Shown one piece after another: positions 3,029-43,148 of a DNA stretch of 64,000 nucleotides. How positions within the stretch are numbered: the stretch's first letter is position 1; each line of letters opens with the position of its first letter. The DNA comes from a bacterium SCSIO 12827 (lineage in GTDB: Bacteria; Pseudomonadota; Alphaproteobacteria; Rhodospirillales; Casp-alpha2). Location of the stretch: contig CP073746.1 in NCBI GenBank assembly GCA_024397995.1, forward strand, positions 992,001-1,056,000, read 5' to 3'. Both the position numbers and the translations under genes were made by a program. Below the pieces are notes generated by a model. That model searched no databases. It saw only the letters and a list, made by a program, of their open reading frames with translations, and was not told where the DNA came from.

Positions 3029-3032
3029 GCGC

Positions 3033-4238: not shown

Positions 4239-4374
4239 ATTATATTTCACACAATTTGTGTACAATTGCTGGATCGTGCCGATCCCGGGAATCCGGGGTT
4301 TTCCCCTGGGCACATCATGGTACAACCGCGGGTCGCCGGATTTCAGGTTCGGCAGGCCGATCCAGGGGACGTCC

Positions 4375-5907
4375 ATGACCGCCTTCGCCTTTACCGCCGC
4401 CGTGTTTCTGACCGCCGCCGGGGCCCTGGTCCTGGAAATCGTGGCCGCGCGCCTGATCGCCCCCTATGTGGGCATGTCGCTATACACCTGGACCGCGATC
4501 ATCGCCATCGTTCTGGCCGGGCTTTCGATCGGGCATTGGCTGGGCGGGCGTCTGGCCGGGCCGGACGTCGGGCGGGCCGAGGGCGTGCGCCGCACGGCCC
4601 TGGCCCTGGCCGCCGCCGCCGTCACCACCCTGGCGTCGCTGCCGCTGCTGCGTCTCGTCTCGGGGCCGTTGTTGTCGGGCGGGTTGGGCGCCGTCACGGC
4701 GGTGGTCGTGCTGACGGCGGTTCTGTTCCTGCTGCCGTCCCTGTTCGTCGGCATCGTCTCGCCCCTGGCGACCAAGCTGGCCATCGATGCGGAACCGGAC
4801 CAGGCGGGGCGGGTGCTGGGCCGCATGTTCGCGGCCGGCGCCGGCGGCAGCATCTTCGGCACCCTGGCCGCCGGATATCTGTTCATTTCCTGGGTCGGGG
4901 CGACGGGGACGGTGATCGCCGTCGCCGTGCTGTATGCCACCCTGGCCGCGGCCTTCGGCCTGTGGTCGCGGCGCTGGGCGGCGGTTCTGGCGCTGCTTGT
5001 GCTGCCGGGGGGCGGGCTCGCGGCCTGGGGCAACGCGCTCGCGGCCTACCGCTCGCCCTGTCAGGTGGAAAGCGACTATTTCTGCATCCGCTTCGACGAC
5101 TTCTCCGCGATGAGCGGGCGGCCCAGCCGCCTGATGGTGCTCGACCATCTGGTCCATTCCATCAACGACCGCGACGACCCGACGTTGCTGTACAGCCCCT
5201 ATGTTCATTTCGTGGACGAGATCGCGGATCTGCGCCTGGCCGGGCACCGCGCGACGCGGGCCTATTTCATCGGCGGCGGCGGCTATACCCTGCCGCGCGC
5301 CTGGACTCGCCTGCACCCGGACATGAAGATGACGGTGGCCGAATTGGACCCGGCGGTGACACAGGCGGCGGCGGAGCAAATGTGGCTCAACCCGACCGAT
5401 CCCAACCTGCACATTCTGCATCAGGACGCGCGCCAAGCGCTCAACCGGCTGGACCCGGCGGAACGCTTTGACGTGGTGTTCGGCGATGCCTTTCACGATA
5501 TCGCCGTGCCGGCCCATCTGGTGACCCGGGAATTCCATGGTGAATTGGCGGCACGCCTGAGCGAAGGCGGGTTCTATGCGGTCAACGTGGTCGATTTGGG
5601 CAGCGATCCGCGATTTCTGTTCGCCCTGGTCAAGACGCTGCGCTTGGACTTTCCCGCCGTCGAGGTTTGGAAGACCCTGGATGAAATGGACGAGACCGGG
5701 CGTGTGACCTTCATCGTTCTTGCCTCGGCGCGGCCAACCCGGGAAACGCGCATCGCTTCCCTGCGCGGCTTGGCGCGGGCCTGGGCGCGTTGGCCTGAAA
5801 ACGACCTGGACCGCCGGCTTGCGGCGGTCGACCCTCCCGTGCTGACCGACGACCACGCGCCGGTTGAACGGTTGTTGTCACGGTTGTTGCGCGCGCCCGA
5901 CATTTGA
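4375..5907 (+). CDS. Fused membrane domain plus spermidine-synthase-like methyltransferase-fold protein
   Basis: 510-residue protein with an N-terminal block of about seven hydrophobic helices (residues ~1-215) and a C-terminal Rossmann domain of the spermidine synthase (SpeE) type. The SpeE region includes YFIGGGGYTLPRAW, then AELDPAVTQAA and QDARQALNRL, the nucleotide-side motifs of aminopropyltransferases. Such membrane-fused SpeE-like proteins are common but their reaction is mostly unproven. I start at ATG 4375, preceded by AGGGGAC; upstream in-frame sequence to 4258 lies in the promoter region. It ends at a bidirectional terminator shared with the converging DsrE gene. Confidence 0.8.
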   Translation: MTAFAFTAAVFLTAAGALVLEIVAARLIAPYVGMSLYTWTAIIAIVLAGLSIGHWLGGRLAGPDVGRAEGVRRTALALAAAAVTTLASLPLLRLVSGPLLSGGLGAVTAVVVLTAVLFLLPSLFVGIVSPLATKLAIDAEPDQAGRVLGRMFAAGAGGSIFGTLAAGYLFISWVGATGTVIAVAVLYATLAAAFGLWSRRWAAVLALLVLPGGGLAAWGNALAAYRSPCQVESDYFCIRFDDFSAMSGRPSRLMVLDHLVHSINDRDDPTLLYSPYVHFVDEIADLRLAGHRATRAYFIGGGGYTLPRAWTRLHPDMKMTVAELDPAVTQAAAEQMWLNPTDPNLHILHQDARQALNRLDPAERFDVVFGDAFHDIAVPAHLVTREFHGELAARLSEGGFYAVNVVDLGSDPRFLFALVKTLRLDFPAVEVWKTLDEMDETGRVTFIVLASARPTRETRIASLRGLARAWARWPENDLDRRLAAVDPPVLTDDHAPVERLLSRLLRAPDI

Positions 5908-5910
5908 CCA

Positions 5911-5972
5911 CCCCAAGAGACCTAAAAAAGGGGGCCACAGCTTTTTCTGCGGCCCCCGCTCAGGTCTTGGGG
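5911..5972. terminator. Bidirectional rho-independent-type hairpin
   Basis: Inner stem GGGGGCC (5930-5936) pairs with GGCCCCC (5951-5957); an outer stem of CCCCAAGAGACCT and AGGTCTTGGGG flanks it. A run of six A at 5924-5929 gives a U tract on the minus strand. It sits between converging genes ending at 5907 and 6001 and can serve both. Confidence 0.75.
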
Positions 5973-6000
5973 GAGGGAGAGTCTTCAGGAAGAATGTTGG

Positions 6001-6462
6001 TTACGGCTTGATATAGGTGTAGCCCATCTGCTGCAGATGGGAGAGTTCGGCCACGCCCGACGGGACGATGTCTTCCGGGAAGACTTCCAGAAGGTCGGTC
6101 TCGTAGTTGATCTTGCGGCCCTTCAGCGTGTTGTTGCAGACGTTGAATTTGACGTTCTGCGATTTCAGGCTGACGACCTGACCCTTCAGCTTGTCGTTGG
6201 ACTTGGCGTTCTTCAGCACGCCCAAACCGTTGCCGTGCAGGACGACCTTGATGTCCATGTTTTCCGCGCCGACCGCGTTGATGTGGTTCTGAATGTTGCG
6301 CAGGGCGCCGCGGTATTTCTTGTCTGCTTCGCCGCCTTCATAGTTGATGTGATAGACGACCTTCTGCTTGCCGTAAGGATCGGCGGCTTCAGCCTTGGTG
6401 AGCCCGACGAGAACGACCCCAAAGACGGCAAGCGCCGTCAACATACTGGTGAGTACCTTCAT
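6001..6462 (-). CDS. Exported DsrE/DsrF-like family protein
   Basis: Periplasmic 153-residue protein with a Sec signal peptide (MKVLTSMLTALAVFGVVLVG, cleavage near AEA-A). The mature part has the DsrE fold pattern: KVVYHINYEGG near the start, a VVLHGNG strand-loop and a single Cys109 in FNVCNNTL, the position used by DsrE/TusD-type proteins to carry persulfide sulfur. I start at ATG 6462, which has GGAGGA nine bases upstream; the ATG at 6474 overlaps that site. Exported DsrE proteins often accompany sox genes and may bind or shuttle sulfane sulfur. It lies downstream of soxF on the same strand. Confidence 0.82.
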   Translation of the reverse strand: MKVLTSMLTALAVFGVVLVGLTKAEAADPYGKQKVVYHINYEGGEADKKYRGALRNIQNHINAVGAENMDIKVVLHGNGLGVLKNAKSNDKLKGQVVSLKSQNVKFNVCNNTLKGRKINYETDLLEVFPEDIVPSGVAELSHLQQMGYTYIKP

Positions 6463-6536
6463 TATTTCCTCCATGTTTTTGTAGTTTAAGGCGCAACCCT
6501 ATTCTGGGCATCGACAATGATAGGATTCCACACCTT

Positions 6537-6568
6537 TCAAACATATTCAATAAATCTTATGTGTTTGA
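6537..6568. promoter_or_regulatory. AT-rich putative operator upstream of the dsrE-like gene
   Basis: TCAAACATA (6537-6545) faces TATGTGTTTGA (6558-6568), an imperfect inverted repeat. Inside it, 6544-6567 follows the TATTCA...TATGTG layout seen before other sulfur genes here. It lies between the soxF stop and the dsrE start, so dsrE probably has its own promoter. Confidence 0.42.
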
Positions 6569-6580
6569 GCGCGTGCTGCG

Positions 6581-7849
6581 TCAGCCCCAAACGCGACCCA
6601 TGATGCCGCGCAGCCAAAGCTCCGCCTTATCGGCGCCGGCTTGTAGGTCCTCGGCCGAGGCCCCCCCGGGCGTGCGCTGCATGGTCTTTCCGTCGACGAC
6701 GACATGCCCGTTTTCCAGGTGGAAATCGGTGCTGGCCTCGAACCCGTGGCCGGGGGCGGCCAGGGAATAACAGCCCGCGTGCCACTGGGGAGCGGCCATG
6801 TCGGCCTGGGTCAGGTCGCGAACGATCGCCTGAGCGCAGGTCTCCGCGACGCTGACTGCGGCGGCGGCGGCCTTTGGCAAGGGTGGGGCGAAGGCGGCGT
6901 CGCCGATGACATGGACATGGGGAACACGGGTTGAGGCGAAAGTCGCCGGATCGACCGGGCACCAGCCCGTTTCATCGGCGGCACCGGCGGCCAACGCGAT
7001 GTCGCCGGCACGTTGGCGGGGGATGAAGTTGATCACATCGGCGGGTACGTCGTCGAAGTCCGTGGCCACGGTGCGCGTTTCCGGGTCGATGGCGCGGACG
7101 ATGCCGTCGCTTTCCGCCAGCCGGTAATCGATCATGCCGGGATAAAGCGCGGCCCAAGCTTCCTCGAACAGGGGCTGCAGGGCGAACTTGGATTTGGCGT
7201 CGAATACGATGATCTTGGATTTCGGTTTGGCGGTCTTGAAGTAATGGGCGACCAGACTGACCCGCTCGCCGACCGCGGGCGGGCAGCGCAACGGCCCGAC
7301 AGGGGCGACCAGGGCGAACACACCGCCGTCGGGCATGGCCTCAAGCTGGCGGCGCAATAGGACCGTCTGCTCACCCGCCTGCCAGGCATGAGGAATCCGG
7401 CCCGCCGTGGCAGCGGAAACGCCCTCGACCTCATCCCAAAAAAATCCGATGCCGGGCGACAGCACCAGTTTGTCGTATGGCAGAACCGAGCCGTCGGCGA
7501 GGCGCAGAGTCCGCGCGTCCGTATCCACGGCATCGGCCCGGCCGGTGATGATTGTCACGCCGTCCTTGGCCAGGGCGTCATAGCCGACTGTCTGGTCCTC
7601 GATGCGACCGAACCCGCTGATCACGGTGTTGCTCCCTGGACAGCAGACAAAGGTCGTATCCCGCGCGACCAGGGTGACATCGATCCCTGGCGCCAACCGC
7701 TTGATCGTTCGGGCGGCGGCGCTGCCGCCGAACCCGCCGCCGACGACCACGACGCGCCCGCCCTTGGCCCGCGCAATCCCGGGCAGGGCCAGCGTTGGGG
7801 CTGTGGCGATCAGGCCGAGGACGGTGCGCCGGGACCAGCCGGGAGTCAT
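6581..7849 (-). CDS. soxF: SoxF/FccB-type flavoprotein (sulfide dehydrogenase flavocytochrome flavoprotein subunit)
   Basis: Exported FAD disulfide-oxidoreductase of 422 residues. After a Tat-like leader (SRRTVLGLIATAP) comes the dinucleotide motif VVVVGGGFGGSAAA (about 33-46). Redox-type Cys occur in FVCCPGSN (69-70) and GPLRCPPA, and HVIGDAA lies near the second FAD-contact region, as in FccB of flavocytochrome c sulfide dehydrogenase. It should oxidise sulfide or polysulfide in the periplasm, normally with a cytochrome partner; no fccA/soxE gene adjoins. ATG 7849 is chosen because AAAGGA lies eight bases upstream; a GTG at 7873 is an alternative. Divergent from the soxS-like gene. Confidence 0.85.
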   Translation of the reverse strand: MTPGWSRRTVLGLIATAPTLALPGIARAKGGRVVVVGGGFGGSAAARTIKRLAPGIDVTLVARDTTFVCCPGSNTVISGFGRIEDQTVGYDALAKDGVTIITGRADAVDTDARTLRLADGSVLPYDKLVLSPGIGFFWDEVEGVSAATAGRIPHAWQAGEQTVLLRRQLEAMPDGGVFALVAPVGPLRCPPAVGERVSLVAHYFKTAKPKSKIIVFDAKSKFALQPLFEEAWAALYPGMIDYRLAESDGIVRAIDPETRTVATDFDDVPADVINFIPRQRAGDIALAAGAADETGWCPVDPATFASTRVPHVHVIGDAAFAPPLPKAAAAAVSVAETCAQAIVRDLTQADMAAPQWHAGCYSLAAPGHGFEASTDFHLENGHVVVDGKTMQRTPGGASAEDLQAGADKAELWLRGIMGRVWG

Positions 7850-7918
7850 GGAGGATGTCCTTTCAATGCTCACCTCGGCTTGACGCCGGGCCCTGCATCA
7901 TGGCTCTAATCCCGGCCC

Positions 7919-8332
7919 ATGAAAAGCACCTCACCCGATGGCGCGCGCGCCCCGATTGTCAAATCCGTCGTCCTGGGCGTTCTGGCGACGTTGCTGTTGG
8001 CGGGTCTGTTTGCGGGCTCGAAGGCCGCGGCGGCGGAACTGGTGTTGTTCGAAAGCGACACCTGCGAGTGGTGCGAACGGTTCCACAAAGAGATCGGACC
8101 CGCCTATCCAAACACGGCCGAGTCCAAATGCGCGCCGTTGCGCCGTATCGACATCGACGACCCGCGGCCGGACGATCTCGCCCATATCAAGGGCATCGTC
8201 TTCACGCCGACCTTCGTGTTGATTGAGGACGGCGAGGAAGTCAGCCGCCTGACCGGCTATCCGGGCGAGGATTTTTTCTGGAGCCTGCTCGACCGCGACC
8301 TGAAGAAGCTGCGTCATCCCTGTCCTGGTTGA
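7919..8332 (+). CDS. soxS: Periplasmic thioredoxin-fold protein, SoxS-like
   Basis: 137-residue protein with an N-terminal membrane/signal segment (residues ~15-38), then a thioredoxin fold with active site CEWC (Cys49, Cys52) and a cis-proline segment FTPTFVLIEDG. Size and CxxC resemble SoxS of Paracoccus, which keeps the SoxY Cys arm in a productive reduced state. It probably receives electrons from the CcdA-type protein encoded at 12613. It is divergent from soxF with 69 bp between starts. SoxS is the best label by length and setting; a general periplasmic thioredoxin is the alternative. Confidence 0.75.
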   Translation: MKSTSPDGARAPIVKSVVLGVLATLLLAGLFAGSKAAAAELVLFESDTCEWCERFHKEIGPAYPNTAESKCAPLRRIDIDDPRPDDLAHIKGIVFTPTFVLIEDGEEVSRLTGYPGEDFFWSLLDRDLKKLRHPCPG

Positions 8333-33207: not shown

Positions 33208-33453
33208 TCAGGCCGCCTTGGCCAAGTCGTCGAACAGCTGCGCGTTCGGGCAGAACCAATGATAGTCCTGCGCCCCGTCCAGGCCGGCCAGCCAGGAAAA
33301 GCAGGCGTCGGCGTTTTCGCAGGTTCGGCAGCGCGCATTGGCCAGCCGCATGCGTTCTTGCGGCACATGGGCGTCGTTGATGTTGAGGGTTTTCAACGCT
33401 TCCACCAGAAGGGGGGATCGGGCGGCCGCGTCGCTTTCAAGAAGATGAACCAT
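33208..33453 (-). CDS. DUF6455-family cysteine protein
   Basis: 81 residues with four conserved Cys: Cys42 and Cys45 (RCRTC), Cys51 (ACFSWLAG) and Cys68 (WFCPNAQLF). The RC-x2-C-x5-C-x-W-L and FCPNA pattern is that of DUF6455, suggesting metal binding; function unknown. ATG 33453 is preceded by GAGGAG at seven bases. It stands alone. Confidence 0.72.
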   Translation of the reverse strand: MVHLLESDAAARSPLLVEALKTLNINDAHVPQERMRLANARCRTCENADACFSWLAGLDGAQDYHWFCPNAQLFDDLAKAA

Positions 33454-33581
33454 GATGATGCTCCTCATCGTTCAGGGTGGTCACTGGGGCCACCCTAGCG
33501 ACTTGGCATCGGCCCGCATTGATCCAGGTCATCCGCGCCGCCGGTCCGCGCGGCGGGATGAGCTGGGATCGGATGATCGCG

Positions 33582-34208
33582 TCAGGCGGTGGGCAGCGTC
33601 GCCCGCACGGTCGCCGAACGGTCCCACAGGTTCGGCACGCTGGTCGAGGAATAGCCCGAGACGAAGGGTTTGATCTCATTCGTTTCCGGCTTGAACACAT
33701 GGCGTGAGACCGCGCCGATGTTGGCGCCGTAGACGTGGATGCTGATCGACGGCTTGTCGGCGAAGGAGTTTTCGACGACGTGGATATCGCCGATGGTCGG
33801 CGACACGGCCTCGACCTGACCGGGGGTCAGTTCGGCCCAGCCCCCCACTTGGTGCAGTTTGCCTTGGGCGTCCTGTTCGAAGCGGACTTCCTTTTCCGCC
33901 CCTCGCAGCATGCCGATCAGGCCCCAGACCATATGGTCGTGGACGGGCGTCTTCTGCCCCGGGCCCCAGACGAAGCTGACGACGGAAAACCGTTCCAGCG
34001 GGTCGGCGTGCAAAAGGTACTGCTGATAAAACTCGGGATGGGGCTGGGCAAATGCCTCGGGCAGCCAGTCGTCGCGGGACACCAGCGTGCTCAGCAGCTT
34101 GCGGCCTTCGGCGAGCAGGGTTTCTTCGGCGTCGGTCTTGGAAACAAGGTTCGTCATGGCGATGACGAAATCGCGCAGCGGCGCGATGGAGTCGGGGGAA
34201 GAGGTCAT
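33582..34208 (-). CDS. Cysteine dioxygenase-family thiol dioxygenase
   Basis: 208-residue cupin that would add O2 to a thiol to make a sulfinate. Iron ligands are His90 and His92 (PVHDHMVWG) and His143 (GDIHVV); SIHVYG (about 156-161) carries the conserved His/Tyr of the active site. The substrate may be cysteine, 3-mercaptopropionate or another small thiol; the sequence alone does not decide. Its start overlaps the IclR gene by 4 bp (ATGA), making it the last gene of a four-gene coupled operon. Confidence 0.8.
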   Translation of the reverse strand: MTSSPDSIAPLRDFVIAMTNLVSKTDAEETLLAEGRKLLSTLVSRDDWLPEAFAQPHPEFYQQYLLHADPLERFSVVSFVWGPGQKTPVHDHMVWGLIGMLRGAEKEVRFEQDAQGKLHQVGGWAELTPGQVEAVSPTIGDIHVVENSFADKPSISIHVYGANIGAVSRHVFKPETNEIKPFVSGYSSTSVPNLWDRSATVRATLPTA

Positions 34209-35062
34209 TCGGATGCCTTCCGTTTTTCTTTCTCTTGGTGGATGGGGCGGCCGGGGGCCAGGGGAATGGATGAAGCGGTGGCACCGATGGCGCAGGGATC
34301 GATCGGTGCCGGCGGCGACGGATCGCCGGCCAGGGCGCGTTCGACGGCCTCCGCGGCCTTGGTGACCTCAACACCCAACGCTTTGAAGCGGCCGGGGCGC
34401 AGGCGTTCCGCCGGGCCCGAAACACCAATGGCGGCGATCACGCCGCCGGCCGGATCGTGGATCGGGGCGGCCACGCCGCAGACCGTTTCCTGCCACTCAC
34501 CGGTGTTGACGGCGTAGCCGCGCGTGCGGATGCCCGCCATTTCCTGAAGGAAGGCATCGGCGTCGGTGATGCTTTTCGGCGTGTGGGCGTGCAAGTTCTC
34601 GGCCAGCGCGCCGAGCGCCGCCTCACCCAAGGCGGCCAGCATAGCCTTGCCCGTGGCGACGCAGCGCGCGGGGGCGCGGCCGCCGATCGCGGAATAGGCG
34701 CGGACCGGCTCGGGGCTTTCCAATTTGTGCAGATAGACCACCTCGTCCCCGTCGAGGACCGAGAGATGGACGCTTTCCCGAGTCCGCGCGAGCAGGGCCT
34801 CCATGGCCGGCAGGGCCAGTTGGCGGAGGTCCAGATGATTGAGCATGGCCGTGCCCAGTTCCCACAGGCGGATCGCCGCCGCGTAGGTGCCGGTGGCGGC
34901 GTCGCGGCGGACGTAGCCCAGTTCCGTCAGGGTCTGCAACAGGCGGTGGGCGTTGCTTTTTCCCAGATCGACCCGCGCCGCCAGTTCCGACACGCCGAGC
35001 GCGCGGTCGCTATGGGCCAGCACCTCCAACAGCGCCATGCCGTTGACCAGGGTGTTGTTCAT
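34205..35062 (-). CDS. IclR-family transcriptional regulator
   Basis: 285 residues. Winged-helix domain with ALLEVLAHSDRALGVSELAARV and LGKSNAHRLLQTLTELGYV (about 10-55), then the IclR effector domain with TGKAMLAALGE and a conserved GYAVNTGEWQETVCGVAAP stretch. Start ATG 35062 overlaps the upstream CoA-transferase stop by 4 bp. Being inside the operon, it likely senses a pathway intermediate and acts on the operon promoter, where a perfect palindrome lies at 37295-37311. Confidence 0.88.
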   Translation of the reverse strand: MNNTLVNGMALLEVLAHSDRALGVSELAARVDLGKSNAHRLLQTLTELGYVRRDAATGTYAAAIRLWELGTAMLNHLDLRQLALPAMEALLARTRESVHLSVLDGDEVVYLHKLESPEPVRAYSAIGGRAPARCVATGKAMLAALGEAALGALAENLHAHTPKSITDADAFLQEMAGIRTRGYAVNTGEWQETVCGVAAPIHDPAGGVIAAIGVSGPAERLRPGRFKALGVEVTKAAEAVERALAGDPSPPAPIDPCAIGATASSIPLAPGRPIHQEKEKRKASE

Positions 35063-36267
35063 GCGACCACCCCGCCGGCGCGCCATTCGGCGATGTCTTC
35101 GGCGCTGAACCCGGCTTCGGCCAGGATCTCGTCGGAATGTTCGCCGACATGGGGCGGTGCGTGGTCGACGGCGCCGCTGCCGTGGGCCAGCTTGAACCCC
35201 GGCCCGACCAGGCGCAGGGGACCGTAGGGCGAGTCCACTTCCTGCAAAAGGCCGCGTTCCACGACCTGGGGATGGTCGGCGATTTCGTCGATGCCCTTCA
35301 CCGTGGCGCAGGGCACGTCGGCTTCGGTCAGACGCTGTTCCCAGGAATCAGGATCCCCTTCGCGCATCGCGCCTTCGATCACGTCGCGCAGGGCGCCTGC
35401 GTTTTCCGTCCGCGCCGCCCAATCGACGAAGCGCGGATCGGTGAGCGCGTCTTCCCGGCCCAGCGCCTTCATCAGATTGACGAACTGCTTTTCCAACAGG
35501 ATCGCCAGGATGATGTAGCCGTTGCCGCAGCGGAAGCGGTCGGCGGTCACCTTGCGGGTGACCGACAGGTTGCCGTACTGGCGCTGCACGAAACCGGCGA
35601 CGGTGTATTCGGTCACGTGCTGGGCCAGGAAATTGAGGGTCGAATCCAGCATGGCGACGTCGACGAACTGGCCCTTTCCGGTCTGCGTGCGCTGGTGCAG
35701 GGCGGCGGAAACGGCGAAGGCGCCGGTCATCCCGCCGATCAGGTCGCAGGCGGCGAAGCCCGCGCGCATGGGGCCGCCCTCGGCCTCGCCGGTGATCGAC
35801 ATGATGCCGGACATCGCCTGAATCTTGCCGTCGAAGGCCGCCTTGGCGCTTTCCGGCCCGCTGTGGCCGAACCCGGACACCGCGCAATAGATCAGTTTCG
35901 GATTGATCGCCTTGAGCGTTTCGTAGCCCAGGCCGAAGCGGTCCATCACGCCGGGGCGGAAATTTTCCCAGACGATGTCGGCGTCCTGAACCAGGCGTTT
36001 GACGATCTCCTGGGCCTCCGGCTTTTTCAGGTCGAGGGTCAGACTGCGTTTGTTGGCGTTGATCGCCATGAAGGCCGGCGCCATGTTGCGGTCGACCCAT
36101 TCCTGGCTGAGCTGGGCGCGTCGGTTGTCCTCGCCACCGATGGGCTCGATCTTGACCACGTCGGCGCCCAGCAGGGCGAACTGATAGGTCCCGAAGGGGC
36201 CTGCGAAGAACCGGGTGAAGTCGAGAACCTTGATCCCATCGAAGGGGCGGGGGCCCGGCGCGGTCAT
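35059..36267 (-). CDS. CaiB/BaiF (class III) CoA-transferase
   Basis: 402 residues. Moves CoA between carboxylic acids through an aspartyl-CoA. N-terminal KVLDFTRFFAGPFGTYQFALLGADVVKIEP is the family signature; the nucleophile is probably Asp175 in FAACDLIGGMTG. Later segments GQFVDVAMLDS and VPCATVKGIDEI also match. GGGGGG before ATG 36267 and a 4-bp overlap with the upstream gene set this start; sequence out to 36408 is shadow. Its partner acid is unknown; the operon suggests a sulfur-containing carboxylate. Confidence 0.88.
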   Translation of the reverse strand: MTAPGPRPFDGIKVLDFTRFFAGPFGTYQFALLGADVVKIEPIGGEDNRRAQLSQEWVDRNMAPAFMAINANKRSLTLDLKKPEAQEIVKRLVQDADIVWENFRPGVMDRFGLGYETLKAINPKLIYCAVSGFGHSGPESAKAAFDGKIQAMSGIMSITGEAEGGPMRAGFAACDLIGGMTGAFAVSAALHQRTQTGKGQFVDVAMLDSTLNFLAQHVTEYTVAGFVQRQYGNLSVTRKVTADRFRCGNGYIILAILLEKQFVNLMKALGREDALTDPRFVDWAARTENAGALRDVIEGAMREGDPDSWEQRLTEADVPCATVKGIDEIADHPQVVERGLLQEVDSPYGPLRLVGPGFKLAHGSGAVDHAPPHVGEHSDEILAEAGFSAEDIAEWRAGGVVA

Positions 36268-37241
36268 GCCGTCCCCCCGGCTGTGGCCTTCTTCAATTCC
36301 TTTTCCCGCAGTTCCTTGGCGACGATGCGGGCGTTTTCCGCCTCGGCGCGCAGCGCCGCGACCTCTTCGGGCGAGCGGCGGGCGATGTTGCAATAGTCGC
36401 CCTTCCAATCCGGATCGTCTGACCAGCGCAGCGGCGATTGCACCGTGGTGCGCGGGCCGGTGGCGCTTTCCAATACCCGCAGGCCCAGCTCCAGCGTCTC
36501 CGCCTGGGATTTCGGGTCGTGCGGCCGGCCGGCGGCGTTGCCCAGGGGAAAGTCACTGAACAGAAAACGCGGCACGCCGCAATATTCGACGATGTCCTTG
36601 GCGCAGCCCATGACCACCGTGGGGATGCCGTTGGCTTCCAGATGGCGGGCGATCAGGCAGAGGGTCTGGTGACAGATCGGGCAGTTGGGGATCAGGATCA
36701 CCACGTCTGCGCCGTCTTCTTGGCAACGGTTGAGGATTTCCGGGCAGTCGAAATTGAGAGTGTGCTGCTGACTGCGGTTGGTCGGCGCACCGTGGAAGCG
36801 TTTCGTCAGGCCGCCGATCCGCCCGGTCGTCTGGGCGTCCCGCAATGCCGCCAAGGGGAACCAGGCGCGGGCGTCTTCCATGCTGGTATGGATCCGGTCG
36901 ATGCCGACATGGGAAATGCGCAGGTCGTGTTCCGCCGCCGTGTCGCCGGAATAGACCTGATAGAACTTGGCGGCGGAGTTGTAGGGTGCTCCCGGTCCCT
37001 GCGGGCCCTTGTCCGGCTGATAGGGGGCCGCCGTGGTGATGAAGGTCACCTGCGATTGCGCCAGGGGCTTGGTCAGCGGCGTGAACGGCACGTCGATGTA
37101 GTGGGCCCAGACATAGGGGTTGTCGTAGCCCAGCGCGAGATACCATTCCCGCGTCCGCCGCATATAGGGGACGGGTTGATCCAGTTCCGGCGCGAAGGCC
37201 AATCCGCTGTCGCTCTTCGGCGCGGTCTTACTCGATGTCAT
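36264..37241 (-). CDS. Glycine/sarcosine/betaine reductase selenoprotein B-like protein (Cys form)
   Basis: 325-residue relative of GrdB/PrdB reductase subunits. Early segment LGYDNPYVWAHYIDVPFTPL and ITTAAPYQPDKGPQG match that group, as does GADVVILIPNCPICHQTL followed by IARHLEANGIPTVVMGC. At the selenocysteine region it has Cys187-x-x-Cys190-His, and no in-frame UGA interrupts the gene. GrdB-type proteins cleave C-N bonds of amines by thiol chemistry; an aerobic role here is not known. I start at ATG 37241, which has GAGG seven bases upstream; ATG 37247 is possible. First gene of the coupled operon. Confidence 0.72.
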   Translation of the reverse strand: MTSSKTAPKSDSGLAFAPELDQPVPYMRRTREWYLALGYDNPYVWAHYIDVPFTPLTKPLAQSQVTFITTAAPYQPDKGPQGPGAPYNSAAKFYQVYSGDTAAEHDLRISHVGIDRIHTSMEDARAWFPLAALRDAQTTGRIGGLTKRFHGAPTNRSQQHTLNFDCPEILNRCQEDGADVVILIPNCPICHQTLCLIARHLEANGIPTVVMGCAKDIVEYCGVPRFLFSDFPLGNAAGRPHDPKSQAETLELGLRVLESATGPRTTVQSPLRWSDDPDWKGDYCNIARRSPEEVAALRAEAENARIVAKELREKELKKATAGGTA

Positions 37242-37294
37242 CCTCATGCCTCGTGTCTTGGTCTCACGGGTCGGTCGGATCGCATGATCCGTTT

Positions 37295-37311
37295 GTTCTA
37301 TTATATAGAAC
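37295..37311. promoter_or_regulatory. Perfect palindrome in the promoter of the reductase-CoA-transferase operon
   Basis: GTTCTAT (37295-37301) and ATAGAAC (37305-37311) are exact inverted repeats around TAT, 54 bp before the first start codon. It is a likely operator for the IclR regulator encoded third in the operon. Confidence 0.55.
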
Positions 37312-37383
37312 ATCAATTCCATTAATCGGAAAGAATTTTATCGTCACCGCCGCACGCTTGCCCCGGCGTGTCCGCGATATACC

Positions 37384-40326
37384 CTACGGCGCCTTGGCCG
37401 AAACCCGGCACATGTAGCCCTTGAGGTTGGCGTGGTCCGACAGCGGGTCGCGCTGGGTCTCGTCGGTCAGATGGTTGACCGACGGCCAGGGGTGGAACGG
37501 CTGGGCCCGGTCCCAGCCGATGGGGATGAACACCGTGTCCAGGCGGATGCCCGCATGCAGCCAGGCCCGTGCCCGGATTTGGCCGTGGTCGGTTTCGACC
37601 GTGACCTCCCGACCGTCCTCGATACCCAGCGCCGCCGCCTTGGTCGGGTGGATCTGGACATACAGGTCCGGCCACATTTCCTGAGCCTGCCAGGAATAAT
37701 GGGTCCAGGAATGGAAATGCGGGGCCGCCGGGCGGCCGGTGATCAGCTGCGTGTCGAAGCCCCGGGCCTTGAGGGCGCGGGCTGGGGAATCGGCCCCCGG
37801 CTGCACGATGCGGGACGTCACCGTATCGACCTGGCCTTTGGCGAAGGGGCTGCGGACGGTCGGGCCGGTGCCGTCGCCGCGCACCGCATAGGGCAGGTCG
37901 ATGAGCTGCTCGCGGTCCGTATAGAATTCGGGCAGGGCGGAAAAGCCGAGAGCCTGGAACTTGGCTTCCTGCGCCTCGGTCCAGAATTCCAGTTTGCCGC
38001 TTTTGGTCGGGAAGCGGTGGCCTTCGGGGGAACCGAGCGCGGTCGTGCCTTCCAGGTGCAGGGTCTCGATTTCCTCGGCGTCTTCGTCGACCACGGGGAC
38101 ACGGACCCAGCGCCAGGGAACGGAATGCAGGCGTTTTTGCGTGCAGCCCTTCATCCAGGGATCGTTGATGCACATCTCGTCCCAGAACAGGGCGCTATCC
38201 TTGTACTTGTCCTGCAGCACGTCGTCGAAGCCGAACCGCTTGCCCAACTCGATCCAGATCCAGCCGTCGGCCTTGGCCTCGCCCGGCGGGTCGATCACCT
38301 TGTCGATCCAGACCACCCGGCGGTCCTCGCTGGCGCGGCTGATCTCGCCTTTCTCCACGCCTGTGGCGGCGGGCAGGACATAGTCCGCATAGGCGCTGGT
38401 TTCATTGGCGAACAGTTCGATGTGAACCAGCAGGTCGAGGGACTTGAAGGCTTCCCGCACCCGGTCCTGATGGGGCCAGGCCGACAGCGGATTGTTGCAG
38501 GTGATGAAGGCGCGGATCGGATAAGGGTCGGCGGTCTGCATGGCGTCGAGCCAGCGCGCCGGGTTGACCCCGGCCATGGGCTTTTCCGGATGGCGGATGC
38601 GGTCCGGCGGCGCGTTGGCGACCACCGGCGACGGCGTGCCGAAGTTGAAGAAAGCGCCGCCACGGCGCCCGATATTGGCGGTGATGGCGGCCAGGAACAT
38701 CAGGGCGCGGTTGGTCTGTGTGCCGTTGGCGTGCTGGTTGACGCCACGCGCTGCGAAGATCACGCAGCCGTCGGCCCGGGCAATGTCCTCGGCCAATGCC
38801 CGGATCTGCGCCGCCTCGATGCCGGTGATCCCGGCGGCCCAGTCCGGCGAATAGCCCTTGGCCATCAGATAATCGCGCCAGGCGTCCCAGCCTTCGACCC
38901 AATTGTCGCAGAACCGCTGGTCCTGCAGATTGCGGTCGAACACGTGATGGGCGAGGGCCAGAGCCAGCGCCAGGTCCGTGCCGGGGCGGATGCCGAGCCA
39001 TTGATCGGCCTTACTTGCCGTCACGGTCAGGCGCGGGTCGACCACCACCATGCGGGCCCCGTTCTTCAGCCGCCAGTCGTTGATCATGCCGAAATGGACG
39101 GGCCGGGATTCCGCCTGGTTGTCGCCGAAATAAACGTAGAGCGCGGCACTGCCCAGATCGCTCGGGGTATAGCTGTTGCCGCTGCCGAGCATGCCGATGG
39201 TCTGATCATAGGCGACGGCCTTGGCCTCGGAACAGAAGGGCTCCGTATCGGTGAAATTGGGCGTGCCCCACATCTGGGTGAACAGGCGGATGTATCCCTT
39301 GCGGGTCAGGGTGCCCGTGCGGGTGCCGGCGAACAGGGCCAGCGCTTCCGGCCCGTGTTTGGCGCGCACGACTTCCAGCTTGGCTGCGATCTCGTCGAGC
39401 GCCTGGTCCCAGCTGATGGGCTCGAACTTGCCTTCGCCCCGTTCGCCGACGCGCTTCAGCGGCTGGGTCAGGCGGTCCGGGCTGTTGTGAAGCTGCAGCA
39501 GAAACTGGGACTTGGGGCAGACCTTGCCCTTCCATTGCGGATCGTCCTCGTTGCCCGTCACGCGGATCACCTTGCCGTCCTTCAGGTGATACTGCGTCGG
39601 GCAGCAGTTGAAACAGATGGTGCAGCCGCCCGATACGATCTTGTCCGGGGCCCGTTCTTCGCGGGTCGAACGATAAGGAAAGGCCACGTCGTCCGGGCTC
39701 AGCGCCGGGCGCCGCTTCGGGTCGTCGATCACGGCCGGGCGGTGGCGGCCCGCCATCGTAAATCCCTCGGTGGCGGGGGCGCTGGCCTTGATGCGCTCGA
39801 GGAAGATGTTGGACGGGTCCAGAAGGAAGGCGTCGTGGTCGACGGCGCGGCGGCCGTCGGTTTCGATTTTTGCCAGGTGGTCGGCGCGGTCGCCGAAGGT
39901 GATGGCCTCGCCGGGGCAGACCGTGGCGCAGGCGGGGCGCAGGCCGACCGCGCGGCGGTCGTGGCACAGGTCGCATTTCACGGCGTGATGGTCGATGGCG
40001 TCATAGCCCATGGCGCCGTAGGGGCAGGCGATGACGCATTCGCCGCAGCCCGTGCAGCGGTCTTCGTTGATGCGCACGACGCCGGTGTCCGGGTCTTTGA
40101 AGATCGCCTTGGGTGCCACCGGGCAGGCACGCAGGCAGGCGGGCCGCTCACAGTGCTGGCAGGACAGGGTCAGGAAATCCAGGGCCGGTTGCGTGGTATC
40201 GCCGAGCCAGACCACGCGGTTGCGGTTTTCACCCGGGCCCAGGCCGTGTTCCGCCTTGCACGCTGCCTCGCAGCTTTTGCAGCCGATGCAGCGTTCCATG
40301 TCGATCATCAGGGACAGGCGGGACAT
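37384..40326 (-). CDS. Fused 4x[4Fe-4S] ferredoxin and molybdopterin oxidoreductase
   Basis: 980 residues combining subunits that are usually separate. Residues 1-145 are a DmsB-like ferredoxin with 16 Cys (13/16/19/23, 56/59/64/68, 91/94/97/101, 118/121/133/137). From ~230 a DMSO-reductase-family catalytic domain follows, with its own [4Fe-4S] Cys set (235, 238, 241/242, 270) and a probable Mo ligand Cys365 in TEPFCSEAKAV. No Tat signal, so it faces the cytoplasm, as SoeA/SoeB sulfite dehydrogenase does. The membrane partner is encoded just upstream (12 bp). The substrate is not determinable; sulfite is one candidate. Confidence 0.85.
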   Translation of the reverse strand: MSRLSLMIDMERCIGCKSCEAACKAEHGLGPGENRNRVVWLGDTTQPALDFLTLSCQHCERPACLRACPVAPKAIFKDPDTGVVRINEDRCTGCGECVIACPYGAMGYDAIDHHAVKCDLCHDRRAVGLRPACATVCPGEAITFGDRADHLAKIETDGRRAVDHDAFLLDPSNIFLERIKASAPATEGFTMAGRHRPAVIDDPKRRPALSPDDVAFPYRSTREERAPDKIVSGGCTICFNCCPTQYHLKDGKVIRVTGNEDDPQWKGKVCPKSQFLLQLHNSPDRLTQPLKRVGERGEGKFEPISWDQALDEIAAKLEVVRAKHGPEALALFAGTRTGTLTRKGYIRLFTQMWGTPNFTDTEPFCSEAKAVAYDQTIGMLGSGNSYTPSDLGSAALYVYFGDNQAESRPVHFGMINDWRLKNGARMVVVDPRLTVTASKADQWLGIRPGTDLALALALAHHVFDRNLQDQRFCDNWVEGWDAWRDYLMAKGYSPDWAAGITGIEAAQIRALAEDIARADGCVIFAARGVNQHANGTQTNRALMFLAAITANIGRRGGAFFNFGTPSPVVANAPPDRIRHPEKPMAGVNPARWLDAMQTADPYPIRAFITCNNPLSAWPHQDRVREAFKSLDLLVHIELFANETSAYADYVLPAATGVEKGEISRASEDRRVVWIDKVIDPPGEAKADGWIWIELGKRFGFDDVLQDKYKDSALFWDEMCINDPWMKGCTQKRLHSVPWRWVRVPVVDEDAEEIETLHLEGTTALGSPEGHRFPTKSGKLEFWTEAQEAKFQALGFSALPEFYTDREQLIDLPYAVRGDGTGPTVRSPFAKGQVDTVTSRIVQPGADSPARALKARGFDTQLITGRPAAPHFHSWTHYSWQAQEMWPDLYVQIHPTKAAALGIEDGREVTVETDHGQIRARAWLHAGIRLDTVFIPIGWDRAQPFHPWPSVNHLTDETQRDPLSDHANLKGYMCRVSAKAP

Positions 40327-40338
40327 CTCTGCGTTCTC

Positions 40339-41172
40339 CTACCAGGCCGCCAGATGCCACCAGTAAATGTCGCGCCCGTCGGCGACATATCCGGCGAAGA
40401 AGGTAACCAGGACGACGTGCAGGATCAGGCCCGCAAGGAACAGCCAGGCCAGCGCCATGTGGACCGGCCGCCACCAAGCCTGCAGCCAGGATACCGATCG
40501 ACGGGCGCCGATCAGCCGTGCCTCTTCCCGGGCCAGTCGGGCATAGGCAAGTGATTTGACGGGGGCCCGCAGGAAATGCCGCAGGGTGGGTGAGAACAGG
40601 GCCTCGCTGGCCTGAGCATCAAGGTGCCGGAGCAGCGCTGCCTTCCTGTCGATAAGAGCCCGCAGCTTGGCCTTCAGACCCGGATCGGCGGCCTGGAACG
40701 GCGCCGATTTGCGCCCGAAGGTCGATGCCATGCGGGACGACACATGGACCCGCGCGACCACGCCGGTCAGGACCAACAGGACCAGGCACGCGACCAGGAC
40801 GAGCGGCGGACCGGAAAATGCCGCGGCGGCATGGAGGGAGACCAGGAACATGCCGAGCAGGCTGGCCCCCACATGCAGGATGAACAGGCGGTTGGGAATT
40901 TGGCTGTGCCCGGCCCGTTTACCAAGGGAGAACAGGAAGGGTGCGAGCAGCAGGACCGCGCCGATCGCCGCCACGGGCTGCAGAATTTCCGTGCCCGGGC
41001 GCTGCCAGGGGGCCGGCAGGAACGGCTTGGCGATGAGAAAGCCGGCGATCGCCAGCACCAAGCTGGCGACCCAGATCAGCAGGCGCCGGTTCGACAGGTC
41101 GGGCCGCTTGGGCGATTTCGCCGGCGCGGGTGCGGCGGGGCTGGTGTGGAGATCCTGCGTGTTCGTGGTCAT
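40339..41172 (-). CDS. Cytochrome-b-like membrane anchor subunit
   Basis: 277 residues with five hydrophobic helices (about 28-49, 64-86, 95-118, 123-143, 236-258) and a long cytoplasmic loop (about 144-230). His in FILHVGASLL, SLHAAAAF, RPVHMALAW and LILHVVLV are candidate haem ligands. It sits 12 bp upstream of the fused molybdoenzyme gene on the same strand, so it probably links that enzyme to the quinone pool. It is shorter than NrfD-type anchors and closer to cytochrome b561-type folds. Confidence 0.75.
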   Translation of the reverse strand: MTTNTQDLHTSPAAPAPAKSPKRPDLSNRRLLIWVASLVLAIAGFLIAKPFLPAPWQRPGTEILQPVAAIGAVLLLAPFLFSLGKRAGHSQIPNRLFILHVGASLLGMFLVSLHAAAAFSGPPLVLVACLVLLVLTGVVARVHVSSRMASTFGRKSAPFQAADPGLKAKLRALIDRKAALLRHLDAQASEALFSPTLRHFLRAPVKSLAYARLAREEARLIGARRSVSWLQAWWRPVHMALAWLFLAGLILHVVLVTFFAGYVADGRDIYWWHLAAW

Positions 41173-41197
41173 GTCCCCCAGGGTACGGCATCGTTCT

Positions 41198-42082
41198 TTA
41201 TTGGGGAATATCCCCGGCGACGCTGCAGCGGATCATATGGCGATTTTCCGCCATGTCATAATCGGCGACCGCGCGGTGGCAGGTCGACCGATTGTCCCAG
41301 ATCACCAGATCGCCGACCCCCCACATGTGGCGGTAGATGTATTGCGGCTGGTAGCAATGCTCGAACAGAAAATCGAGAACGCGGCGGCTTTCGCTAAAGG
41401 AAAGCTCGTTGATCCGACGGGTGAAACCGGGATTGACGTAGACCGTCTTCTTGCCCGTTTCCGGATGGGTTCGGATCACGGGATGGGTCACCGCCGGCAC
41501 CTTGGCCCGTTCTTCCGCCGTCAAGGGCGGGCGGTCGGGCATATGGGCGAAGAAGGTGTCATAGGCGTTGGTGTAATCATGGATCGCGGTCAGGTCGCCG
41601 AGGAACGCCTGCATGGGTTCGGACAGATCGTCATAGGCCTGCGTCATGCTGCAGAACATGGTGTCACCGCCGTAGCTGGGAATTTCCTTGGAATGCAGGA
41701 ATGACCCCTGGGTCGGGCGCGGCATGTAGGACAGGTCCGAATGCCAATACTGCCCGGCATAGATGGCGCCGATCGGCTTGCCGGCCTTCTTGACGTTGGA
41801 GATCAGAAGAACTTCCGGGTTTTCCTCCATGTTGAACTGCGTCAGCACGTGGGCTTCCAGCTGCCCGAATTTCTTCGACAACTCGACAAGCTGATCCGGT
41901 GTCAGGTTCTGGCCGCGCAGCACGATCACCTGATGATCGAGAAAAGCCTGGTACAGGGCCGGGAACAGGTTGTCGTAATTGTCGTCGGCAAGATTCAGGC
42001 CCTTGATTTCGGCCCCCCGGGCACCCGCCAGGCGTTTCACCTCGAGCCCGGATTGCATCGTGGTCATGGTTCCTTCCGGCAT
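41198..42082 (-). CDS. TauD/TfdA-family Fe(II)/2-oxoglutarate dioxygenase
   Basis: 294 residues. Iron triad: YWHSDLSY (His114, Asp116) and CHRAV (His269); the 2-oxoglutarate Arg is in ENRHMIRC. TauD-type enzymes hydroxylate next to a heteroatom and release sulfite from sulfonates, among other reactions. Start ATG 42082 has AAGGA eight bases upstream; ATG 42067 is an alternative. It ends 25 bp before the cytochrome-b gene, so it may be in one transcript with the molybdoenzyme genes. A LysR gene is divergent. Confidence 0.86.
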   Translation of the reverse strand: MPEGTMTTMQSGLEVKRLAGARGAEIKGLNLADDNYDNLFPALYQAFLDHQVIVLRGQNLTPDQLVELSKKFGQLEAHVLTQFNMEENPEVLLISNVKKAGKPIGAIYAGQYWHSDLSYMPRPTQGSFLHSKEIPSYGGDTMFCSMTQAYDDLSEPMQAFLGDLTAIHDYTNAYDTFFAHMPDRPPLTAEERAKVPAVTHPVIRTHPETGKKTVYVNPGFTRRINELSFSESRRVLDFLFEHCYQPQYIYRHMWGVGDLVIWDNRSTCHRAVADYDMAENRHMIRCSVAGDIPQ

Positions 42083-42160
42083 TGTTTGTTCCTTCGGCTC
42101 GTGCGTGTGTTTGAATTGCGGGGGAGTGTAGGGGCACCAGACTATGCCTGAGAAATACCT

Positions 42161-42207
42161 TTGATCGACCAAGATATGCTTAAATGATATATCAAGGTCT
42201 TCGATCA
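42161..42207. promoter_or_regulatory. Imperfect inverted repeat between the dioxygenase and LysR genes
   Basis: TTGATCGACC...GATAT (42161-42177) faces ATATATCAAGG...CGATCA (42187-42207). It is a candidate binding region for the LysR protein, 80-120 bp before the dioxygenase start and just before the LysR start. Confidence 0.4.
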
Positions 42208-42224
42208 TCGCCGGAGTGCATTTC

Positions 42225-43148
42225 TTGAACCTGAAGGCCCTGCAATACTTCCATGCCGCCGCCCGCTACGGCAGCATCGCCCAGGCGGCGGCCCATCTGC
42301 ATGTCGCCCAGCCGGCCGTCAGCCGCCTGATCCGCAAATTGGAACAGGATCTGGGCGTGCGCCTTTTGACCCGCACGGCGCAGGGCGTATCCCTGACAGG
42401 AGAGGGCGATCATCTTCTCGCCCGCACGGCCCCGATCCTGAAACTGTTGGACCAGACACGGAACGAGGTCCGCAATTGGGGTCAGGAGCCGGCCGGGCCG
42501 GTGTCGCTGGCGCTGATGCCTGCCGTCGCCCCCCTGGTCGCGCCCTTATTGGTTCGCCGCGTGCGGGATCAGTATCCCAAGGTTCTGCTCAGCCTGTCGG
42601 AAGGGCTGGGCACCGTCATTTCCGATGGCGTGCTGACCGGCCAGTTCGACTTGGGCCTGTTCCATGCGGACCGGGAGGTGCCGTCGCTCGCGATCACCCA
42701 TCTGTTGGATGAGCCCATGTTCCTGATCGGCCCGGAGGACGGAGCCGGCGGTGACCGGGAAGTGATCGACCTTGGCGAGCTTCCGAATTTCCCCCTGCTG
42801 CTGCCCGAAGCCCCCAACCCCATGCGCCGGATGATCGACGGGCTGACGGCGGACAGGGGGCTTGCCCTCGACATCCGCGAGACCGTTAATTCGACAGCCA
42901 TGATCAAGGCCATGGTTGCGGCGGGGCTGGGCTATACGATCCAGAGCTACAGTTTTTTTCACGAGGAAACGCCGCAAGGCAGTCCCCGGTTTCGGGTCCG
43001 GAAGATCAAGGGGATGTCGCGCAACTGGTCGTTGGTCCGGCTTGAAGGCCGGCCCGCGGGCGGCGCCGTGCTTGCTGTCGCCGGGGTGCTGACCGGCATT
43101 GCCCGGGATTTCGCCGATGCCCATTACCGGCAGGCGCCGGCGGGGTGA
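42225..43148 (+). CDS. LysR-family transcriptional regulator
   Basis: 307 residues. Helix-turn-helix region NLKALQYFHAAARYGSIAQAA and HVAQPAVSRLIRKLEQDLGVRLL (about 2-47), then an effector-binding domain. TTG 42225 fits because CGGAG lies eight bases upstream and LysR proteins usually start at the NLKALQYF segment; GTG 42216 is in frame but overlaps that site. It is divergent from the TauD-type gene, its probable target, and converges on the GntR gene (3 bp apart). Confidence 0.87.
   Translation: MNLKALQYFHAAARYGSIAQAAAHLHVAQPAVSRLIRKLEQDLGVRLLTRTAQGVSLTGEGDHLLARTAPILKLLDQTRNEVRNWGQEPAGPVSLALMPAVAPLVAPLLVRRVRDQYPKVLLSLSEGLGTVISDGVLTGQFDLGLFHADREVPSLAITHLLDEPMFLIGPEDGAGGDREVIDLGELPNFPLLLPEAPNPMRRMIDGLTADRGLALDIRETVNSTAMIKAMVAAGLGYTIQSYSFFHEETPQGSPRFRVRKIKGMSRNWSLVRLEGRPAGGAVLAVAGVLTGIARDFADAHYRQAPAG

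What the first reader, a model, noticed from the sequence alone, without database searches (positions are those of the whole stretch)
33582..37311. Four-gene coupled operon pairing a GrdB-like reductase with CoA transferase and thiol dioxygenase
Seen: four consecutive minus-strand genes overlap by 4 bp each (selenoprotein-B-like, CaiB, IclR, cysteine-dioxygenase-like), with a perfect GTTCTAT-TAT-ATAGAAC palindrome before the first gene. Known: GrdB-type enzymes are best described from anaerobic amino-acid reduction with selenocysteine, while thiol dioxygenases need O2. Inference: an aerobic pathway, with Cys replacing Sec, that releases a thiol acid from an amine or thioether, activates it with CoA and oxidises the thiol to a sulfinate. 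I know of no described pathway with this gene set.
Basis: partly seen in the sequence, partly recalled or inferred. Interest (0 to 1): 0.75.

Follow-up and report, generated by a model that had tools for sequence, protein, structure and literature searches.

The report
Selenoprotein-family gene in organosulfur operon
Four overlapping genes form a small, probably regulated operon that likely breaks down a short sulfur-containing acid, and its lead gene belongs to a selenium-protein family whose job in oxygen-using bacteria is not known.

Summary
Four minus-strand genes (33582-37241) are joined by three ATGA overlaps; a 17-bp palindrome (37295-37311) lies upstream. The dioxygenase is of the 3-mercaptopropionate type (3MDO). 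The lead protein is nearest PrdB of D-proline reductase, but below that family's curated cut-off. In 19 of 29 classable same-class genomes the best relative has an in-frame UGA exactly where this protein has the first Cys of CPIC, usually before a SECIS-like hairpin, so "Cys for Sec" is well supported. The full quartet recurs in four Rhodospirillales-titled MAGs, operator included. A GrdB-like/CoA-transferase/3MDO trio recurs in four MAGs (three titled Burkholderiales/-aceae) with a different CoA-transferase subfamily. Elsewhere the host genome encodes a CoA-transferase beside a 3-sulfinopropanoyl-CoA desulfinase, which completes the described route 3-mercaptopropionate to 3-sulfinopropionate to propionyl-CoA plus sulfite. 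So "no described pathway" is half right: that half is known, the GrdB-like step is not. The GrdB-like protein's most conserved partner is the CoA-transferase; a thiol dioxygenase was found in only 6 of 18 close-relative genomes, so its substrate stays open. My commitment: CoA-transferase plus GrdB-like protein do an upstream bond cleavage that feeds a thiol acid to 3MDO (inferred, about 0.35).

The parts
37295..37311 (.). 17-bp operator-like palindrome GTTCTAT-TAT-ATAGAAC, 53 bp upstream of the first start codon; probable IclR operator
   Evidence: Perfect palindrome. Kept upstream of L002, L003, L004, L011; not seen upstream of L005, L006, L018, L020, where no IclR match lies in the stretch held. 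Binding is inferred.
36264..37241 (-). GrdB/PrdB-like protein, 325 aa, CPIC motif (Cys where many relatives carry UGA/Sec)
   Evidence: PF07355 23 bits; TIGR04483 E 4e-24, below cut-off. Start set by comparison. UGA at the first Cys in relatives, hairpin after it. AlphaFold2 model pLDDT 79, pTM 0.82.
35059..36267 (-). CaiB/Frc-type class III CoA-transferase, 402 aa
   Evidence: PF02515 389 bits; phmmer to solved formyl-CoA and succinate-HMG CoA-transferases. All 11 of 289 class genomes with a close homologue (E <= 1e-100, this genome included) also carry the GrdB-like gene.
34205..35062 (-). IclR-family transcriptional regulator, 285 aa
   Evidence: PF01614 152 bits, PF09339 65 bits. A 59%-identical copy lies 132 bp downstream of the GrdB-like gene in L017.
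33582..34208 (-). 3-mercaptopropionate-dioxygenase-type thiol dioxygenase, 208 aa
   Evidence: phmmer to PDB 6xb9 E 3e-77, 4qma 8e-76, 3uss/4tlf 4e-71, 4wvz 7e-70; 8vni mercaptosuccinate dioxygenase 1e-7; cysteine dioxygenases type 1 at 1e-5 or weaker.

Best explanation
A probably IclR-controlled catabolic operon for a short-chain organosulfur acid. 3MDO oxidises a thiol acid, most likely 3-mercaptopropionate, to its sulfinate. A CoA-transferase/desulfinase pair encoded elsewhere in the same genome converts the sulfinate to propionyl-CoA and sulfite. In the operon, the CaiB-type enzyme makes the CoA thioester of a precursor acid, and the GrdB/PrdB-like protein, with its CxxC pair (UxxC in many relatives), attacks and cleaves a carbon-heteroatom bond (most likely C-S) of that precursor, so that a thiol acid reaches 3MDO. 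Shown by sequence and comparison: gene identities, coupling, conservation of operon and operator in near relatives, the Sec/Cys position, and presence of genes for the whole 3-mercaptopropionate-to-propionyl-CoA route. Inferred: the substrate, that a CoA thioester is the GrdB-like protein's substrate, the bond cleaved, and IclR binding at the palindrome.
For: 3MDO identity. Desulfinase NF042439 at 675 bits (cut-off 600) in this genome (0 of 14 control genomes over the cut-off), 18 bp after a second CaiB-type gene, which leaves the operon CaiB free for another acid; the two CaiB proteins are 34% identical. Across 289 class genomes the desulfinase is in 14 of the 18 with a close GrdB-like gene (E <= 1e-90) against 23 of 271 others (Fisher p 5.7e-11; about 5e-5 counted roughly by family). 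An acyl-CoA-forming gene lies within 7.5 kb of the GrdB-like gene in 30 of 49 non-Polynucleobacter-type loci: CaiB-type in 25 (22 within 300 bp, same strand), PaaK-like ligase in 6. The combination with 3MDO occurs with two CaiB subfamilies (32% identical), each with ATGA overlaps. GrdB-like and CaiB distances mirror each other (r 0.91, 0 of 2000 permutations, 17 loci plus the window). The Azomonas-type cluster holds a TctA transporter, CoA ligase, enoyl-CoA hydratase and SsuD-like monooxygenase.
Confidence: 0.35

Rival explanations
1. The operon only degrades 3-mercaptopropionate and its disulfide: the operon CaiB is the 3-sulfinopropionate CoA-transferase (an Act equivalent), and the GrdB-like CxxC protein is a disulfide reductase that regenerates the thiol from oxidised dimers.
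For: 3MDO plus class III CoA-transferase is the described Mdo/Act pairing (PMC6370202, passages); CxxC/UxxC is a thiol-redox motif; a desulfinase is in the genome.
Against: A second CaiB-type gene already ends 18 bp before the desulfinase. The adjacent GrdB-like/CaiB pair occurs in five class genomes (G093, G186, G187, G205, G281) in which I found no thiol dioxygenase. The family match is to PrdB/GrdB, whose described reactions are reductive deamination and ring cleavage (PMC13188914, passages).
Confidence: 0.25
2. The GrdB-like/CaiB pair is an independent module unrelated to sulfur, for example reductive removal of an amine or another leaving group from a CoA-activated acid; the 3MDO joined the operon by chance or for detoxification in a few lineages.
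For: The close pair is more widespread than the quartet (22 of 49 non-Polynucleobacter-type loci against 4). Most genomes with a close GrdB-like gene showed no thiol dioxygenase (12 of 18). Described GrdB/PrdB substrates are glycine and D-proline (PMC13188914, passages); sarcosine and betaine by family name.
Against: 3MDO is associated in three gene arrangements: Rhodospirillales-type, the L009/L010/L012/L038 type and Azoarcus/Pseudothauera-type. Desulfinase co-occurrence 14 of 18 against 23 of 271.
Confidence: 0.25
3. A true aerobic D-proline or glycine reductase with the classical mechanism (pyruvoyl partner subunit, GrdA-type acceptor).
For: Best family hit is PrdB; UxxC in relatives.
Against: Below the PrdB, GrdB, GrdF and GrdH curated cut-offs; no PrdA/GrdE, GrdA or GrdC among the operon's proteins; the recurrent partners are CoA-transferases or CoA ligases.
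Confidence: 0.05

Closest known systems
3-mercaptopropionate / 3,3'-thiodipropionate catabolism of Variovorax paradoxus TBEA6 (Mdo, Act, AcdA)
   Same: 3MDO-type dioxygenase, class III CoA-transferase, and a 3-sulfinopropanoyl-CoA desulfinase over the curated cut-off in the genome.
   Different: The terms 'selenoprotein' and 'IclR' have no occurrence in the main text of PMC6370202. Here the 3MDO is coupled to a GrdB-like gene and a second CoA-transferase, while the desulfinase lies about 0.64 Mb away.
PrdB (D-proline reductase) and GrdB (glycine reductase) selenoproteins
   Same: Homologous domain, UxxC or CxxC redox motif.
   Different: Scores under the family cut-offs; no pyruvoyl-subunit, GrdA or GrdC gene in the operon; an O2-dependent enzyme is coupled to it.
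'PrdB' selenoproteins of the Sargasso Sea and GOS surveys
   Same: UxxC motif and PrdB name; 42 sequences in PMC1088965, 235 in PMC2398784, there under pfam07355.
   Different: Those were named after proline reductase. I did not test whether they fall in this HQ-motif clade or in the more distant TR-motif clade.
NCBI 'glycine/sarcosine/betaine reductase selenoprotein B family protein'
   Same: The name given to the two plasmid-borne homologues found (65-66% identity, Roseomonas and Haematobacter).
   Different: A name by domain only; those two loci show no 3MDO or CaiB match in 7 kb on either side.

Membership tests
PrdB / GrdB reductases | Profile match over the curated family cut-off | tested here: not met
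   TIGR04483 85 of 300 bits; TIGR01917 42 of 602; TIGR01918 39 of 65; GrdF 41 of 800; GrdH 35 of 775. The general Pfam domain PF07355 is just met, 23 against 22 bits.
PrdB / GrdB reductases | UxxC (or CxxC) redox motif | tested here: met
   CPIC here; U-P-x-C by in-frame UGA in the best copy of 19 of 29 genomes that I could class.
PrdB / GrdB reductases | Pyruvoyl partner (PrdA/GrdE) encoded with it | tested here: not met
   None among the nine window proteins scanned, the operon's four included. Not searched genome-wide.
3-mercaptopropionate dioxygenase | Closest to solved 3MDOs, not to cysteine dioxygenases | tested here: met
   E 4e-71 and 7e-70 to the two sequences labelled 3-mercaptopropionate dioxygenase, 3e-77 and 8e-76 to 6xb9 and 4qma (labelled cysteine dioxygenase type I; 3MDO identity recalled), against 1e-5 or weaker for cysteine dioxygenases type 1.
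3-mercaptopropionate dioxygenase | Activity on 3-mercaptopropionate | not testable with these tools
   Needs an assay.
Class III CoA-transferase | PF02515 over cut-off | tested here: met
   389 bits, cut-off 23.3.
[quoted passage not shown]
   No NCBIfam hit named for it; the seven subfamily scores are all under their cut-offs; the Act sequence was not at hand.
3MP to propionyl-CoA pathway | 3-sulfinopropanoyl-CoA desulfinase in the genome | tested here: met
   NF042439, 675 bits, cut-off 600, at G000:C1:387725-388861.
IclR-family regulator with its own operator | IclR domains and a conserved upstream palindrome | tested here: met
   Domains; palindrome kept in L002, L003, L004 and L011. Binding itself is not testable here.
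Selenoprotein (this copy) | UGA at the active site and a Sec system in the genome | tested here: not met
   TGC codon; no SelB over cut-off; the one hit over the tRNA-Sec cut-off is read as tRNA-Ser by ARAGORN.

The most novel reading that the evidence does not exclude
The GrdB-like protein and its CoA-transferase form a new enzyme system: a Sec- or Cys-dependent reductase/lyase that acts on CoA thioesters and carries glycine-reductase-like bond cleavage into aerobic organosulfur metabolism. It would give a first function to part of the 'PrdB' selenoproteins that are abundant in the oxygenated surface ocean.
Probability: 0.3. Interest if true: 0.82.

Novelty: new variant of a known kind. Interest (0 to 1): 0.62.

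Why it matters
PrdB-named selenoproteins are among the most abundant selenoprotein families in ocean surveys (third in the Sargasso Sea with 42 sequences, PMC1088965, passages; 235 in GOS, PMC2398784, passages), yet the name comes from D-proline reduction in anaerobes. In the passages I saw of four selenoprotein papers none gave a role in aerobes. Here a Cys form sits in a compact operon with an operator, a CoA-transferase and a thiol dioxygenase of a structurally solved type, in a genome that encodes the remaining steps of a described route. This makes the question testable with four genes and a short list of substrates.

Tried and rejected
Upstream Mo/Fe-S oxidoreductase, cytochrome-b-like protein and TauD (37384-42208): attractive as sulfite disposal, but the same run stands upstream only in L002. 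L003 and L011 show no match to them, and L004 only a 28%-identical Mo-enzyme stretch over 4 kb away. Left out of the system.

GrdB-like/CaiB fusion in L009 and L012: my gene caller drew one long ORF over both; translation and start/stop positions showed two genes with an ATGA overlap. The same home-made caller also drew antisense ORFs, so the neighbourhood counts that I use come from tblastn.

ACAD L150 as the desulfinase: second-best PDB match 5af7, but no better than ordinary acyl-CoA dehydrogenases; the curated model NF042439 picks another gene (675 against 309 bits). The c29 ACAD of L139 scores only 114 bits for that model.

Sigma-70 promoter scan of 33300-37500: none found. Searches on 3-mercaptopropionic acid in marine sediment and on demethylation of DMSP products: listings only, nothing used. 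Searches for 'reductase selenoprotein B' (3 papers), selenoprotein B with thiol dioxygenase/CoA transferase (2 papers) and related terms listed no paper that by title or start of abstract describes this gene set; some searches listed only 10-15 of 21 to 8,311 papers, and most subscription papers are not held.

Rows dropped or limits: L108 gave no tblastn hit in my script. Six of 35 GrdB-like genomes could not be classed Sec or Cys: G261 (L108), and G034, G053, G102, G178 and G196, which had no locus. L103 has CPLD, not CxxC; it is counted with the genomes without UGA but is in no group on the tree. The search for related loci kept the best 80 of 128, which favours close relatives. The 20 wider stretches were chosen by me from the 67 matches; G095 gives three of them, G066, G186 and G187 two each. 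The set of 51 Polynucleobacter-type loci was named by me by eye from record titles. L012 is titled Actinomycetes but its genes are near copies of L009's (probably misbinned). The count by family used rough totals that I entered by hand. PF05995 missed the dioxygenases of G066 and G280 that P0003 found, so absence of a thiol dioxygenase means 'not found'. The class of the unnamed G genomes is taken to be Alphaproteobacteria from the titles of the nearest named relatives.
Full report
WHAT IS THERE. On the minus strand four genes run without gaps: a GrdB/PrdB-like protein (36264-37241), a class III CoA-transferase (35059-36267), an IclR regulator (34205-35062) and a thiol dioxygenase (33582-34208). 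Each junction is an ATGA overlap. The ORF list offers a start at 37322 for the first gene, but in the relatives L003 and L004 the only start found aligns with the ATG at 37241, so the palindrome at 37295-37311 is upstream of the gene and not in it. Twenty-five perfect 7+3+7 palindromes exist in the window, so the palindrome alone means little. Its conservation means more: L002 has the same 17 bases, and L003, L004 and L011 read GTTCTATATANYRGAAC, in upstream DNA that by eye differs from the window's. It was not seen upstream of L005, L006, L018 and L020, which have GrdB-like and CaiB genes but no IclR match in the stretch held.

THE DIOXYGENASE. phmmer against solved structures gives E 3e-77 (6xb9), 8e-76 (4qma), 4e-71 (3uss/4tlf) and 7e-70 (4wvz). 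The last two sequences carry the label 3-mercaptopropionate dioxygenase; 6xb9 and 4qma are labelled cysteine dioxygenase type I (that they are 3-mercaptopropionate enzymes is recalled). Mercaptosuccinate dioxygenase (8vni) follows at 1e-7 and cysteine dioxygenases type 1 at 1e-5 or weaker. The TP[VI]HDH and SISIHVYGANIG stretches are kept in the four printed alignments.

THE LEAD PROTEIN IS A CYS FORM OF A SELENOPROTEIN FAMILY. Its best families are PrdB (E 4e-24) and GrdB (E 8e-11), both under the curated cut-offs; Pfam GRDB is just met over its last part. Among 289 genomes of the same class 35 have a relative at E 1e-10 or better. In 19 of the 29 genomes whose best copy I could class, an in-frame TGA stands exactly at the first Cys of the C-P-x-C motif. 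Of those 19, 17 have SelB over the cut-off; of the 10 without UGA there, 2 do (G095, G091), and G095 also carries a UGA copy that is on the tree as L134 (SelB control: over the cut-off in 2 of 14 genomes, E. coli and M. jannaschii). The exceptions among the 19 are G011 (77% complete) and G264. Just after the UGA, 11 of 14 distinct Sec genes share CAGACCGUGAGUCUG, a hairpin with loop CGUGA, as expected of a bacterial SECIS: mean z -1.56 for the 14 against +0.29 for 31 Cys sequences, with two of the 14 (L099, L109) positive. Shared amino acids at this place explain part of the sequence likeness, but the Cys genes, which encode much the same residues, show on average no such fold. The window genome has no SelB over the cut-off; its one match over the tRNA-Sec cut-off is a serine tRNA, and that model also matches all 14 control genomes at E 0.001 or better (over its cut-off in 5). 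On a tree of 56 rows the Sec/Cys state changes at least four times on well-supported branches (seven by parsimony), and the window lies in a 25-row all-Cys clade with 98/95 support.

WHO TRAVELS WITH IT. Of 49 loci outside the Polynucleobacter-type set, a CaiB-type gene lies within 300 bp on the same strand in 22 and within 7.5 kb in 25. A PaaK-like CoA ligase is near in 6, either kind in 30, 3MDO in 11 and the IclR in 5. In 51 Polynucleobacter-type loci none of these is near. Within the class sample all 11 of 289 genomes with a close homologue of the CaiB (this one included) are among the 35 GrdB-like genomes (Fisher p 1.7e-11), and the 8 with at least 55% identity, this one included, sit beside the GrdB-like gene. 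Pairwise distances of the two proteins correlate at 0.91 over 17 loci plus the window, as expected of long co-inheritance. The quartet occurs in L002, L003, L004 and L011 with the same overlaps. L009, L010 and L012 have GrdB-like/CaiB/3MDO in that order with ATGA overlaps, and L038 has the same order with a shortened CaiB, but their CaiB is about 32% identical to this one. These four are MAGs, partly near copies of each other, and L012 is titled Actinomycetes. Azoarcus/Pseudothauera loci (L027, L031, L035) have 3MDO 3.7-6.5 kb away in a cluster with an enoyl-CoA hydratase, and L013 (Azomonas) has a CoA ligase, enoyl-CoA hydratase and an SsuD-like monooxygenase. The recurrent theme beside the GrdB-like gene is making a CoA thioester; 3MDO is a recurrent but optional addition.

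THE REST OF THE PATHWAY. In Variovorax paradoxus TBEA6, 3-mercaptopropionate is oxidised by Mdo to 3-sulfinopropionate, which is activated by the CoA-transferase Act (or by SucCD) and cleaved by the desulfinase AcdA to propionyl-CoA and sulfite (PMC6370202, passages read). This genome encodes a protein at 675 bits for the curated desulfinase model (cut-off 600) at G000:C1:387725-388861, and a 412-aa CaiB-type gene ends 18 bp before it. Hence genes for the known half-pathway are all present, and the operon's own CaiB (34% identical to that one) need not be the sulfinate transferase. In the stretches held around the desulfinase of four other genomes (L166-L168, L170-L172) no such CaiB matched. 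Over the class sample 37 of 289 genomes have the desulfinase over the cut-off (0 of 14 control genomes): 19 of the 35 GrdB-like genomes, and 14 of the 18 with a close copy (E 1e-90 or better) against 23 of 271 others (p 5.7e-11; about 5e-5 counted roughly by family). Large generalist genomes could inflate this.

AGAINST. 3MDO homologues are in 12 of 289 genomes and only 5 of these have a GrdB-like gene (p 0.008). Counting any thiol dioxygenase found, 6 of the 18 close GrdB-like genomes have one (G000, G066, G080, G091, G095, G280). Therefore the GrdB-like/CaiB pair probably does not depend on 3MDO everywhere, and its substrate could lie outside the 3-mercaptopropionate family.

NOVELTY. The 3-mercaptopropionate half is known chemistry. 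The GrdB/PrdB-like family is known by name and as 'PrdB' in ocean surveys (PMC1088965 and PMC2398784, passages), but the lists returned by my searches showed no paper describing its association with a CoA-transferase or thiol dioxygenase. I rate this a new variant of a known kind, with a bold reading (a CoA-thioester-acting Sec/Cys lyase in aerobes) that the evidence does not exclude.

Noticed in passing
37384-42208: Directly upstream, same strand: a fused 4Fe-4S/molybdopterin oxidoreductase (980 aa), a small cytochrome-b-like membrane protein and a TauD-type dioxygenase, with a divergent LysR gene at 42216-43148; it looks like a taurine/sulfite unit. The same run was seen only in L002.
   Followed up: partly
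L169:6472-9892 (own genome, G000:C1 about 385471-388891): Phytanoyl-CoA-dioxygenase-like gene (by eye), CaiB-type CoA-transferase and 3-sulfinopropanoyl-CoA desulfinase in a row; stretches around the desulfinase in four other genomes (L166-L168, L170-L172) show no match to that CaiB.
   Followed up: partly
L104, L105, L107, L109, L111: A second, distant clade with U-P-x-C-T-R in place of U-P-x-C-H-Q (Cys members L106, L110); the five UGA members sit in genomes with SelB except G264.
   Followed up: no
L136:9787-10821; L172:11059-12063: Luciferase-like monooxygenases lie close to the GrdB-like gene (L136, MsnO8 family) and beside the desulfinase gene (L172, judged by eye), a possible further link to organosulfur use.
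   Followed up: no
51 of the loci L022-L081 (Polynucleobacter-type): A stand-alone Cys-type GrdB-like gene, about 60-66% identical to the window's, with no CaiB, PaaK-like ligase, IclR or 3MDO match in the stretch held; its role there is unexplained.
   Followed up: no
L176:4086-8198: In Paraburkholderia the 3MDO gene sits in a row with an LLM oxidoreductase, a class II aldolase and a rhodanese, a different 3MDO context.
   Followed up: no
33208-33468: Small DUF6455 protein downstream of the operon, at the same place in L002; in L004 a 53%-identical copy lies some 4 kb further off, and none matched in L003 or L011.
   Followed up: no
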